7,378 nucleotides of DNA. Origin: Planctomycetales bacterium. Its GTDB lineage: Bacteria > Planctomycetota > SZUA-567. Location: NCBI GenBank assembly GCA_025997475.1, contig BNUQ01000069.1:1-7378 (forward strand). Direction: 5' to 3'. Shown piece after piece: positions 3,524 through 7,378 of the stretch. Numbering within the stretch: the stretch's first letter is position 1; every line of letters begins with the position of its first letter. The notes under the pieces were generated by a model that saw only the letters and a program-made list of their open reading frames with translations, made no database searches and was not told the DNA's origin. The translations under genes were made by a program, and so were the position numbers.

Positions 3524-5830
3524 ATGTCCACCGAACCGTCCCCCCCTGCCCCGCCCGCGACCGGCAAAAAGAAAATCAAAGCCGCGTTGGTCGGCAATCC
3601 GAACTGCGGCAAGACCACAATCTTCAACGCGCTCACCGGCGCCCGCCAGCACGTCGGCAACTACCCCGGCGTAACCGTCGAAAGTAAAATCGGACACTTC
3701 CGCCTTTCGGCGCGTCGGTCCGGCGCCGACCAACGTCGAGACGATTATCGTCGAGACGATTATCGTCGGGACGACCAACGTCGAGACGACGGTTGTCATT
3801 GCGATAACGCCCCCGCGCCCGCGTTGCCCGCAACCGCGTTGCCGGCGGGCGATTACGAAATCGAACTTATCGACTTGCCCGGCGTTTATTCGCTGTCGTC
3901 GTCTTCGCCCGAAGAGGAAGTCGCGTTCACCGAACTCACCGCCGCCGGTCTCGATTTAATCATTAACGTCGTCAATTGCGCCGCCCTGCAACGCAATCTG
4001 TATCTCACCACGCAGGTCTCGGAGTTGCATATTCCGATGCTCATCGCGTTCAATATGAGCGACGAAGCGGAGGCGAAGGGCGAGCGCTTTGACTTGCCGG
4101 CACTCGAAGACGCGCTCGGTTATCCGATTGTCAAAACCGTCGGCCACAAGGGCGGCGGACTTGACGACTTGAAAGAAAAATTGCTGACGGTTTGCGCGAA
4201 TTTAAGCCGACACAAAACGCCGAAATTAAACTACGGCGAGGACGTCAGCGATGCGATTGCCAAAATTGCCGCGCCGATTGCCGAAATTCACGTTACCAAA
4301 TTCGCGCATATTCCGCCGCGCTTTTTCGCCATCAAATTGCTCGAACACGACGCCACCGTGCTGAAAATGCCGGAGTTCGCGCCGGTGCATCAACTCGCCG
4401 CCGAGCAAATTCAACATTTAAGCGGCGCGCACGCGATTGACGCCGACACGTTTGTCGCCGACCGCCGCTACGCGCTGATTTCCGGCATCTGCCGACAGGC
4501 GGTTACCTTTAACGAGGAACACCGGCGCGAGGTCTCCGACCAAATCGACGCGGTGGTTACCAATCGCTGGCTCGGTTTGCCGTTGTTTTTACTGGCGATT
4601 TATTTGGTGTTCTGGGTAACTTTCACCGGCGGCGCCCCGCTGATGGAATTGATTGAGGACGGCTTCGGCTGGTTGCAGGATTTTATCAAAGCGGAGTGGA
4701 CCGACGACTCGACGTTGCGGCGGTTGCTGGTCGAGGGCGTTATCGGCGGCGTCGGCGGCGTGTTGGTTTTCCTGCCGAATATCGTGTTGATGTTTATCGC
4801 GCTGGCGTTTTTGGAGGACTCCGGCTATATGGCGCGGGCGTCGTTTGTCGTGGACGGGATAATGCGAAAATTCGGCTTGCACGGCAAAAGTTTTGTGCCG
4901 TTGGTGTTGGGTTTCGGTTGCACGGTGCCGGCGATTATGGCGACGCGCAGTATCGAGTCGACGCGCGACCGGACGGCGACGATTATGATTTTGCCGCTGA
5001 TGAGTTGCGGGGCGCGCCTGCCGATACACTTGCTCGTCATCGCCGCGTTTTTCAGCGCCCGACAGGCGACGATGATGTTCGTCATTTATTTGCTCGGCGT
5101 CGTCATCGCGCTCACGGCGGCGATGTTGATGAAGAAAACGATTTTTCGCGGCGACAACGAGGTCTATTTAATGGAACTGCCGCCCTACCGCCTGCCGACT
5201 TTACGCGGCATTTTAATTCACGCCGGCGGACGGGCGAAGACGTATTTGCACCGCGCCGGCACCGTTATTTTGGCGGTGTCGATACTGCTGTTCTTCGCCA
5301 ATAATTATCCAGAAAAGCAAGATTTTTCGGTTGATTACGCGGCGGCGCGAACGGCGCTCGCGGCGGACGACGAAGAGGCGAAGGCGGAAATTGACCACGC
5401 CGAATTGTCGGAACGGTTGGCGTTCACCGTGTCGGGACGGATTGGCAAATTTTTAGAACCGGTGTTTCAGCCGCTCGGCTTTGACTGGAAAATCAGCACC
5501 GCGATGGTCGGCGCGCTGGCGGCGAAAGAAGTGTTGGTGTCGCAATTGGGGATTTTATACGCGGCGGGCGACGCCGACGAAACCTCGGAAAGTTTGCGGG
5601 CGAGTTTGGTGAAAAATTATTCGCCGTTGCAGGGCTTTTGTTTGATGGTGTTCTCCTTGCTGTCGATTCCCTGCGTCGCGACGCTGGCGATGGTGCGTCG
5701 CGAACTGAACTCGTGGGGCTACGCCGCGCTCGAAGCGGTCGGCTTATTGGCGCTGGCGTATGTCGTAACGTTCATCGTCTATCAAGGCGGGACGCTACTA
5801 CATATCGGGACGAAATTGGCGGGCGGGTAA
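3524..5830 (+). CDS. feoB: ferrous iron transporter FeoB, 768 aa
   Basis: FeoB imports Fe(II) across the inner membrane under GTPase control. The N-terminal G domain shows G1 GNPNCGKT at 24-31, G2 around T51 (GNYPGVT), G3 DLPG at 117-120, G4 NMSD at 177-180 and a G5-like loop near 205-210. A helical linker (about 220-340) leads to the membrane domain with both Gate motifs: GFGCTVPA at 463-470 and IPCVATLA at 715-722, plus MSCGARLP at 493-500 and AKEVLVSQLG at 667-676. Length is near that of E. coli FeoB, but residues about 60-108 are an insertion of some 46 residues between G2 and G3, with an RRDDY/RRDDQ repeat and a C-H-C motif. The N-terminus has a short Pro-rich extension. AGGA lies 5 nt before the ATG. 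No feoA or feoC is in the window; the gene is divergent from the reverse rubrerythrin. Confidence 0.97.
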   Translation: MSTEPSPPAPPATGKKKIKAALVGNPNCGKTTIFNALTGARQHVGNYPGVTVESKIGHFRLSARRSGADQRRDDYRRDDYRRDDQRRDDGCHCDNAPAPALPATALPAGDYEIELIDLPGVYSLSSSSPEEEVAFTELTAAGLDLIINVVNCAALQRNLYLTTQVSELHIPMLIAFNMSDEAEAKGERFDLPALEDALGYPIVKTVGHKGGGLDDLKEKLLTVCANLSRHKTPKLNYGEDVSDAIAKIAAPIAEIHVTKFAHIPPRFFAIKLLEHDATVLKMPEFAPVHQLAAEQIQHLSGAHAIDADTFVADRRYALISGICRQAVTFNEEHRREVSDQIDAVVTNRWLGLPLFLLAIYLVFWVTFTGGAPLMELIEDGFGWLQDFIKAEWTDDSTLRRLLVEGVIGGVGGVLVFLPNIVLMFIALAFLEDSGYMARASFVVDGIMRKFGLHGKSFVPLVLGFGCTVPAIMATRSIESTRDRTATIMILPLMSCGARLPIHLLVIAAFFSARQATMMFVIYLLGVVIALTAAMLMKKTIFRGDNEVYLMELPPYRLPTLRGILIHAGGRAKTYLHRAGTVILAVSILLFFANNYPEKQDFSVDYAAARTALAADDEEAKAEIDHAELSERLAFTVSGRIGKFLEPVFQPLGFDWKISTAMVGALAAKEVLVSQLGILYAAGDADETSESLRASLVKNYSPLQGFCLMVFSLLSIPCVATLAMVRRELNSWGYAALEAVGLLALAYVVTFIVYQGGTLLHIGTKLAGG
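3728..3793 (+). repeat. 15-bp in-frame minisatellite inside feoB
   Basis: Four tandem 15-bp units (3734, 3749, 3764, 3779), each beginning CGTCG[AG]GAC followed by a 6-bp variant (gattat, gattat, gaccaa, gacggt); a further gaccaa precedes the first. Each unit encodes five residues of the R-R-D-D-x type, so copy-number change would keep the frame. It lies between the G2 and G3 motifs of the GTPase. Confidence 0.85.
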
Positions 5831-6036: not shown

Positions 6037-6057
6037 AAAAAAAAATCCGTCCTACGG
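6037..6057 (-). terminator. terminator at the end of the minus-strand fragment
   Basis: On the minus strand a short stem (CCGT 6047-6050 with ACGG 6054-6057) overlapping the stop codon is followed by nine or more Ts. A larger dyad, 6028-6036 with 6065-6073 (9 bp), encloses it and reaches into the last codons. Confidence 0.5.
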
Positions 6058-6516
6058 GACTTGCCGGATGCCGACCGGCGCATAAAAAACATAGCGTCCG
6101 CAATCACCGATGGCGCGAACGTCGTGCATATCGACTATTTTTTCCGCGACGGCGACGGCGCGAGCGCGGTCGTCGCTCACAATGAACAGCGGATACGTCC
6201 GTGCGACAGCGCGATACCGCGCCAGCGTTTCAGAATTCTCCGCAATCATTTCATAATAGCCGCCGACCGAATTTTGCGGCTGATAAAACTTGAAGTAAAA
6301 CATAAACGGCAACGCGACATAATCGCGAGTGAACAGCACTACGCCGCCGTCGGGCGCGGCGATTTTCGCCGCGAGAATAGCGGCGTCGCGGTCAACATAT
6401 TCGTCGTAATTCGGGTCGTGGTCATAGAGATTGCCGTTGCCGCCGTAATCCGACGACAATAAATTCCACGCCGGCTTGTTGTTCGCCACCGCGCATTGCG
6501 TCTTAAATTTCGCCAC
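6052..6516 (-). pseudogene. C-terminal fragment of a GT39-like membrane protein
   Basis: The frame encodes 154 residues that look like the periplasmic C-terminal tail found after the membrane helices of bacterial glycosyltransferase-39/ArnT-like proteins. There is a Y-G-G-N-G-N-L-Y region, D-P-N-Y-D-E-Y, a Rossmann-like strand G-G-V-V-L-F-T-R-D-Y and then a second strand P-L-F-I-V-S-D-D. There is no membrane segment, no signal peptide and no ribosome site before the nominal ATG at 6516, so it is not a complete gene. The stop codon is followed by a terminator, so this end is genuine. The matching membrane part lies immediately to the right but on the opposite strand. Authentic sequence probably begins somewhere between 6440 and 6500. 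Family assignment is from overall pattern and neighbour, not a search. Confidence 0.6.
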
Positions 6517-7169
6517 CGAATTGCGCGGCTACGCGATGTCTTTACCGTTCGCGTTGACCGCGTTTTACTTTTTGGCGGAATTTTTAACGACCGCGAAACG
6601 ACGACATTTAATCGGCTATTTGCTCAGTTGTTGGCTTTTAGTCGGCATTTTACCGACGAATTTAATCATTCCGGCGGCGCTGGCGATTTGGGCGGCGAGC
6701 GAAATTTGGCGGCAGTCCGGTTTTCCCGCCGTCCGCGCCCGTTGGAAAAATTTGGCGTTGATTACGTTCGCGCCGCTGGCGGGCTTGGCGATTTTGCTAC
6801 CGTGTTACGCGCAGTTGGCGGCAAGCATCGCGCAAGGCGTCGTGGCGTCGCGCGAATTTCTGCTCTGGCACTATCCGGCATCGCTCGGACGCGATATTTT
6901 GTTTATCGCGCCGGTGTTAATCGGCGCGGCATTTTATCGCCGCGTCGCCGCGCCCGCCGTCGCCAATGTTAATGAAACGCCGTTTCGCGCCAATTTTTCC
7001 GCGCCGTTGTTCACGCTCATCGTTTTTCTTGCGCCGCTGTTGTTGTGTTTGCTTTTGCCGCGCGTCCCGGGCGAGCGCGTTTTAGTAACCGCCACGCCGC
7101 TGATTTTCCTCGGTTTGGGCTGTTGGCTTGCCGACGCGGGCGGCAAGATTTTTGCGCCTTACAATTTAC
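6476..7169 (+). pseudogene. middle fragment of a GT39-like polytopic glycosyltransferase
   Basis: A hydrophobic frame with at least five membrane helices. Near its start it has F-A-T-E-L-R-G-Y-A-M-S-L, the [ST]-E-x-R-G-Y-A motif typical of dolichyl/undecaprenyl-phosphate-mannose glycosyltransferase family 39 proteins, which use a lipid-linked sugar donor in the inner membrane. In full proteins about 100 or more residues, with the catalytic acidic loop, precede this motif; here they are missing. The nominal start is a TTG without a ribosome site. The frame stays convincing through R-V-P-G-E-R-V-L-V to about 7169, where a G homopolymer begins; everything after is artefact, so the Gly-rich C-terminus is not real. 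It is probably the same gene as the minus-strand fragment at 6052, in inverted order. Confidence 0.6.
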
Positions 7170-7378
7170 GGGGGGGGGGGGGGGGGGGGGGGGGTTTTTT
7201 TTTGTGGCGCAGGGGGGGGGTTGGGGGGGTGGGGGTTTTCCCCGAAACAAGGGCGGGGGGGGGGGATTTTTTTTTCTGGGGGTTGGGGGGGAACGGGCAA
7301 TAGAGGGGGAGGGCGCCCCGGCGTAACCCCAGTCAAGAATTCTTATGCGGTTGCCGCTCTCTTGTTTGAAAAAAAAAA
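7170..7378. other. sequencing artefact: poly-G tail and Illumina adapter
   Basis: A run of 25 Gs is followed by T-runs, more G-runs and low-complexity sequence. From 7325 to 7378 the sequence aligns without gaps to the 3' part of the TruSeq i7 adapter, as I recall it: A-A-C-x-C-C-A-G-T-C-A, then an 8-nt index, the P7 end and ten As. About 30 of 44 non-poly-A positions agree, and the index slot GAATTCTT is one base from index D706 (GAATTCGT) as remembered. This is read-through of a low-quality read, not genomic DNA. Confidence 0.9.

What the first reader, a model, noticed from the sequence alone, without database searches (positions are those of the whole stretch)
7325..7378. Degraded Illumina index adapter at the contig end
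A gapless alignment to the TruSeq i7 adapter (as recalled) covers 54 positions: CCAGTCA is intact, an 8-nt index slot reads GAATTCTT, then a P7-like end and exactly ten trailing As. Spacing between all elements is the expected one, which chance would not give. The end of this contig is therefore synthetic.
Basis: partly seen in the sequence, partly recalled or inferred. Interest (0 to 1): 0.75.

Follow-up and report, generated by a model that had tools for sequence, protein, structure and literature searches.

The report
Stuttered sequencing adapter beyond poly-G tract
The last 76 bases of this contig are sequencing adapter rather than bacterial DNA; they follow a long run of G inside a bacterial gene that likely made the read slip by one base, and dozens of similar runs in the same genome are predicted to act as on/off switches.

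Summary
Positions 7303-7378 are an Illumina TruSeq read-1 adapter (stem, 8-base index, P7 end, ten As) reading off the contig end. Exact identity is modest (38 of 66), but 64 of 66 letters equal the adapter base at that place or its neighbour; the best of 110,692 genomic positions gives 56. The "degradation" is a one-base stutter: 26 of 28 mismatches equal a neighbouring adapter base. Two other contig ends of the genome carry adapter: C29 (two copies, same index) and C14 (read-2 side, 22 of 24). Only the last 76 bases are synthetic: 7170-7194 is a G tract, present as G11 at the same place in a same-genus genome, and 7195-7302 is a slipped reading of the rest of that gene. All nine places with 17 or more G lie at contig ends. 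The two genomes of this genus have the densest G>=10 tracts of 60 searched (22.6 and 29.6 per Mb), preferentially after TRC, partly in glycosyltransferase genes, often out of frame across the tract. This resembles a poly-G phase-variation set; no reads were available to show switching.

The parts
7303..7336 (+). TruSeq read-1 adapter stem, slipped copy
   Evidence: 18 of 34 exact; part of the 64 of 66 letters within one base of the adapter
7337..7344 (+). i7 index slot, GAATTCTT, read as D706 (GAATTCGT, recalled)
   Evidence: 7 of 8, next best of 12 recalled indices 4 of 8; 8 of 8 within one base; majority of the three copies in the genome is GAATTCGT
7345..7368 (+). P7 end of the adapter, slipped copy
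   Evidence: 13 of 24 exact, not significant alone; significant with the rest
7369..7378 (+). ten As after the end of the adapter, last bases of the contig
7195..7302 (+). slipped reading of the gene downstream of the tract
   Evidence: 7195-7270 aligns to the relative from just after its tract, score 21.5 against at most 16.5 in 500 shuffles; 7259-7301 matches the genome's own downstream part at 6472-6430 minus strand, 28 of 43 exact and 42 of 43 within one base
7170..7194 (+). poly-G tract, 25 as assembled (length unreliable), at the place where a same-genus genome has 11
6476..7169 (+). N-terminal side (incomplete) of a hydrophobic protein, 93% identical to the same-genus relative; no Pfam family
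6052..6473 (-). C-terminal part of the same gene, placed here in inverted orientation by a chimeric join
6469..6595 (.). 127 bases shared exactly with contig C84, which continues as the relative's gene does; the inverted join lies at 6469-6473

Best explanation
The last 76 bases of the contig are an Illumina TruSeq adapter that follows a genomic poly-G tract and a one-base-slipped reading of the gene's own continuation, and the slippage likely arose at that tract during library amplification or on the flow cell. The sequenced insert ran from the gene through the tract, about 108 bases further into the gene, and ended; the read then went on into the adapter and past its end into As. Shown: adapter identity, orientation and spacing; the same index at a second contig end; the one-base stutter; the tract at the same place in a related genome; the gene sequence between tract and adapter. 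Inferred: that the tract caused the slip, that adapter trimming was absent or failed, and that the contig stops here because reads past a long tract disagree. Inferred about the biology: the tract is one of several dozen in this genus whose length changes would put genes in and out of frame.
For: Adapter match against shuffles and genomic controls. Whole-genome search finds only C29 (twice), this place, and one chance hit. Index agreement in three copies. A third contig end, C14, ends in 22 of 24 bases of the TruSeq read-2 adapter, where 61,642 control positions reach at most 16. Stutter: 26 of 28 mismatches equal a neighbouring adapter base, shuffled 12.5 +/- 2.5; shifts of 2-4 at background. 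Tract G11 at the same place in G001. Downstream gene read between tract and adapter. All nine places with 17 or more G are within about 330 bases of a contig end, five of six places with 15-16 G are internal.
Against: No reads or qualities were available. The two C29 copies, also beyond a G tract, do not show the stutter (6 of 18 and 8 of 19 mismatches equal a neighbour, as in shuffles); their errors are mostly to A and T. C14 carries adapter without a long tract at its end, so a tract is not needed for adapter to remain. Of ten ends with tracts of 15 or more, adapter was recognised at two. Stem and P7 parts taken singly are weak. The index list is recalled.
Confidence: 0.95

Rival explanations
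1. The tail is ordinary low-quality two-colour sequence in which dark cycles are called G; the poly-G tract is part of that artefact and not in the genome.
For: 7195-7302 is rich in G and T, and 13 of 28 mismatches to the adapter are to G.
Against: The tract stands at the same place in another genome, with good sequence on both sides there; other contigs of G000 have internal tracts of 15-16; at C24, C27, C63 and C94 the outward run is C, not G; mismatches follow neighbouring bases.
Confidence: 0.04
2. The adapter likeness is chance and the tail is odd genomic DNA.
For: Exact identity is only 38 of 66; the stem and P7 parts singly are weak.
Against: 64 of 66 within one base, controls at most 56; same index at C29; adapter at C14.
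Confidence: 0.01
3. The G tracts of this genus are real but not switches: they are slippage-prone runs that drift without function.
For: Variation within one population could not be tested. Among 31 tract sites with 40 or more open codons on both sides, the two frames agree in 10, about a third, as random lengths would give (one of the 31 is the window's own, whose downstream side is slipped).
Against: Length distribution has a gap at 6-8 and a second mode; 16 of 50 sites recur in the second species; glycosyltransferases at 8 of 24 tract sites against 0 of 20 control ORFs.
Confidence: 0.3

Closest known systems
Sequencing-adapter contamination at contig ends of microbial genome databases (Moeller et al. 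2024, PMC11536531; part 1 of 3 of the text read)
   Same: TruSeq adapter sequence at the extremity of a contig, reading outward, in a published assembly.
   Different: Their screen uses exact copies of the first 12 adapter bases; this genome has none, and the copy here is disguised by a one-base stutter.
Poly-G phase variation as in Campylobacter (PhasomeIt, PMC6321876; passages read)
   Same: Many G tracts per genome, mostly beside or inside open frames: 5-81 phase-variable genes per strain there, 54 and 77 tracts of 10 or more G here.
   Different: Planctomycetota; second mode of run lengths at 11-13 rather than 9-10; the longest tracts break the short-read assembly; a TRC preference before the tract. 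Switching not shown.

Membership tests
Illumina TruSeq adapter contamination | Adapter stem, index, P7 end and trailing As in order with correct spacing | tested here: met
   Ungapped over 76 positions; controls. P7 string also found in papers (listing); index list recalled
Illumina TruSeq adapter contamination | Exact copy of the first bases of the stem (AGATCGGAAGAG) | tested here: not met
   No exact copy in the genome with up to one mismatch allowed in 13 bases; C69 is not among the three near matches. The copy here is slipped, 64 of 66 within one base
Illumina TruSeq adapter contamination | At the contig extremity, reading outward | tested here: met
   Contig length 7378 equals the window
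Illumina TruSeq adapter contamination | Same library index elsewhere in the assembly | tested here: met
   Two copies at the C29 left end, both best with D706
Illumina TruSeq adapter contamination | Adapter in the raw reads at this place | not testable with these tools
   No reads held
Poly-G phase-variable (contingency) locus | Homopolymer of about 8 or more G in or beside a gene | tested here: met
   G25 as assembled, G11 in the relative
Poly-G phase-variable (contingency) locus | Tract length decides the reading frame of the gene | tested here: inconclusive
   In the relative the two sides are in different frames; homologues of 524 and 536 aa are in one frame; in the window the downstream side is slipped
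Poly-G phase-variable (contingency) locus | Length differs at the same site between genomes | tested here: met
   25 (nominal) against 11 here; 16 of 50 G000 tracts have a tract at the matching place in G001 loci, one pair of equal length, one with two matches of which one equal, the rest different
Poly-G phase-variable (contingency) locus | Reversible ON/OFF expression within one population | not testable with these tools
   Needs reads, clones or protein data

The most novel reading that the evidence does not exclude
This planctomycete genus carries a genome-wide set of poly-G switches in surface-glycan genes, with longer tracts than the Campylobacter phasome, and the tracts arise or persist at a preferred DNA site (TTTRC just before the Gs), independent of codon phase and coding strand, pointing to an unknown site-directed process that makes or keeps them.
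Probability: 0.3. Interest if true: 0.7.

Novelty: new member of a known kind. Interest (0 to 1): 0.4.

Why it matters
The artefact itself is ordinary, but it shows how adapter can hide from exact-match screens behind a slip, and it marks where this assembly breaks: at long G tracts. Those tracts point to an apparent poly-G phase-variation set in Planctomycetota, on which three literature searches (15 of 53, 3 of 3 and 10 of 30 papers listed) showed me no report. Such sets would be undercounted in short-read genomes, because the longest tracts fall at contig ends.

Tried and rejected
Other adapters fitted worse than TruSeq read 1 with an 8-base index (41 of 68 including the As): Nextera 32 of 68 and 26 of 72, TruSeq read 2 30 of 72 and 32 of 68, six- and seven-base index slots 34 and 39 of 68. 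Free local alignment of the whole tail to the genome's own downstream part was not significant (13.0; shuffles up to 15.0; control chunks up to 16.5); the placed tests were. An ungapped scan of 7196-7243 against the relative picked a wrong place and 7243-7271 picked the tract itself; the gapped alignment places the stretch in order. The stutter was looked for in the C29 copies and not found. No adapter above the controls at the other tract-bearing ends (no control was computed for the read-2 adapter there). The structure model of homologue P0003 was poor (mean pLDDT 45.0), so no fold search was made; a profile search of solved structures found nothing. No viral relatives of the gene. The class of the interrupted protein stays open: that its start resembles membrane glycosyltransferases (GT-C) is recalled, not tested; Pfam and NCBIfam gave no family.

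Full report
Observation. The window is the whole contig C69 of genome G000 (169 contigs, 2.39 Mb). Its last 76 bases align without gaps to the TruSeq read-1 adapter: stem 7303-7336, index slot 7337-7344, P7 end 7345-7368, ten As 7369-7378. With the index left open and the As left out, 31 of 58 letters match; 0 of 2000 shuffled adapters (best 30), 0 of 2000 shuffled tails (best 28) and none of 14,206 positions of the genomic part of the window, both strands (best 29), do as well. Stem alone and P7 alone are weak (52 and 557 of 2000 shuffled adapters). A genome-wide search with index GAATTCGT returns C29 twice, this place at 7325-7378 (E 1.3e-5) and a 14-base hit on C54 (E 1.9).

Stutter. Of 28 mismatches to the adapter, 20 equal the next adapter base, 14 of 27 the previous one, and 26 of 28 one or the other (shuffled 12.5 +/- 2.5); shifts of 2, 3 and 4 are at background. 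So 64 of 66 letters lie within one base of the adapter; the best of 110,692 positions in the window and 16 other G000 loci is 56, and of 20,000 shuffled adapters 55. A mixture of molecules differing by one G, or a phasing error, would give this; which of the two cannot be told without reads.

Other ends. The C29 left end carries two degraded copies, 57 and 56 of 76; these do not show the stutter (6 of 18 and 8 of 19 mismatches equal a neighbour, as in shuffles), and their errors are mostly to A and T. The C14 right end finishes with 22 of 24 bases of the TruSeq read-2 adapter; 61,642 control positions reach at most 16. So adapter was left in this assembly at three contig ends at least, and a G tract is not a condition for it. 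The index slot is 7 of 8 to D706 (list recalled; next best of 12 is 4 of 8), both C29 copies score best with D706, and the majority of the three copies is GAATTCGT.

What precedes the adapter. The same-genus genome G001 (contig C62, taken to be JAISJR010000042.1, a Planctomycetota MAG, by length and alignment) holds both parts of the gene side by side on one strand, with an 11-G tract where the window has 25 G. Window 7195-7270 aligns to the relative from just after its tract (21.5; 500 shuffles up to 16.5). 7259-7301 matches the genome's own intact downstream part at 6472-6430 minus strand in 28 of 43 letters exactly, best of 14,254 window positions, while 1 of 97,220 positions in other G000 loci also reaches 28; 42 of 43 letters lie within one base, and the only other 42 is the neighbouring register. 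Tract, gene, adapter, end of molecule: the order is that of one read.

Tracts and contig ends. The 20 forward and 89 reverse 15-mers of G in G000 are all accounted for by 15 places (lengths). Nine have runs of 17 or more (C13, C18, C24, C27, C29 left, C62, C63, C69, C94) and all lie within about 330 bases of a contig end. Six have 15-16 (C1, C6, C22, C29 right, C42, C94 second); one of these is at an end. Lengths at ends come from slipped reads and may be inflated. Of the ten tract-bearing ends, adapter was recognised at two.

A tract set in the genus. With 10 or more G, G000 has 54 and G001 77 tract starts, 22.6 and 29.6 per Mb, the highest of 60 genomes searched (own included); the next is 15.7. 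G000's count includes runs in slipped tails. Run lengths in the loci held are bimodal: in G001 834, 124, 16, 5, 1 runs of 4-8 G, then 11, 8, 10, 12, 20, 11, 6 of 9-15; the loci were chosen for holding a tract of 9 or more, which inflates the second mode but not the gap. 16 of 50 G000 tracts have a tract at the matching place among the G001 tract loci; some pairs are only 80-84% alike and may be paralogues; the other 34 were not sought elsewhere in G001. Before tracts of 10 or more, TRC stands in 15 of 43 (G000) and 41 of 70 (G001), against 22 of 459 and 43 of 979 for runs of 4-7. In the 60 genomes TRC precedes 60 of 131 tracts in this genus and 24 of 697 in the other 58. Codon phase and coding strand are mixed, so this is not a codon effect; G000 shows it less strongly than G001.

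Genes at tracts. At 24 tract sites (30 open pieces, picked for long frames, from both genomes) 18 gave Pfam families; 8 sites have glycosyltransferase families (GT11, GT87 three times, GT25, GT2 with a sugar-binding GT region, GT10, PMT_2), others FkbM and further methyltransferases (one below its cut-off), an acyltransferase, a sulfatase, two radical SAM proteins, a subtilase and a histidine kinase. Of 26 control ORFs at least 500 bases from a tract (G000 only), the 20 longest were scanned: 8 gave families, none a glycosyltransferase; 8 of 24 against 0 of 20, p 0.005. The control is small and not matched. The window's own gene has no Pfam or NCBIfam family; homologues of 524 and 536 aa exist in one frame, among 4 proteins found in a search that scored the best 7998 candidates.

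Inverted join. Window 6070-6473 and 6469-7180 match the relative on opposite strands; contig C84 shares exactly 127 bases (6469-6595) and goes on as the relative does for 1627 bases. The window contig therefore contains a fold-back join with about five shared bases. A 127-base overlap suggests a k=127 assembly graph (inference). Whether it arose in the library or is a rare real inversion cannot be told.

Known. Adapter at contig ends of public genomes is documented (PMC11536531, part 1 of 3 of the text). Poly-G phase variation is classic in Campylobacter (PMC6321876, passages). PMC3711429 and PMC11868660 were seen as passages only. Searches listed 15 of 53, 3 of 3 and 10 of 30 papers holding the terms; none of the listed titles or abstracts concerns such tracts in Planctomycetota.

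Noticed in passing
6469-6595 and G000:C84:1-127 (L033): Fold-back join in the window contig: the C-terminal part of the interrupted gene stands inverted before its N-terminal part; C84 holds the uninverted continuation after an exact 127-base overlap.
   Followed up: partly
G000:C14 right end (L001, last 24 bases): The contig ends in 22 of 24 bases of the TruSeq read-2 adapter, without a long G tract.
   Followed up: yes
G000:C29 left end (L037, bases 104-233): Two degraded TruSeq read-1 copies 54 bases apart, with different error patterns from the window's copy, and AT-rich sequence beyond.
   Followed up: partly
G000 and G001 tract loci (L068-L187): Long G tracts stand preferentially after TRC or TTTRC, in this genus far more than in 58 other genomes of the phylum searched.
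   Followed up: partly
L094, L096, L097 (C21, C22) and C94 (L188): In several places the tract, as C, directly follows an ATG that is preceded by a purine-rich stretch, so it would sit at the second codon.
   Followed up: no
C24, C27, C63 right ends (L042, L041, L040): After outward C tracts the tails are nearly free of G, the mirror image of the G- and T-rich tail after the G tract in the window.
   Followed up: no
3721-3800: The FeoB gene (3524-5830) carries an Arg/Asp-rich repeat (RRDDY/RRDDQ) inserted in its GTPase domain.
   Followed up: no
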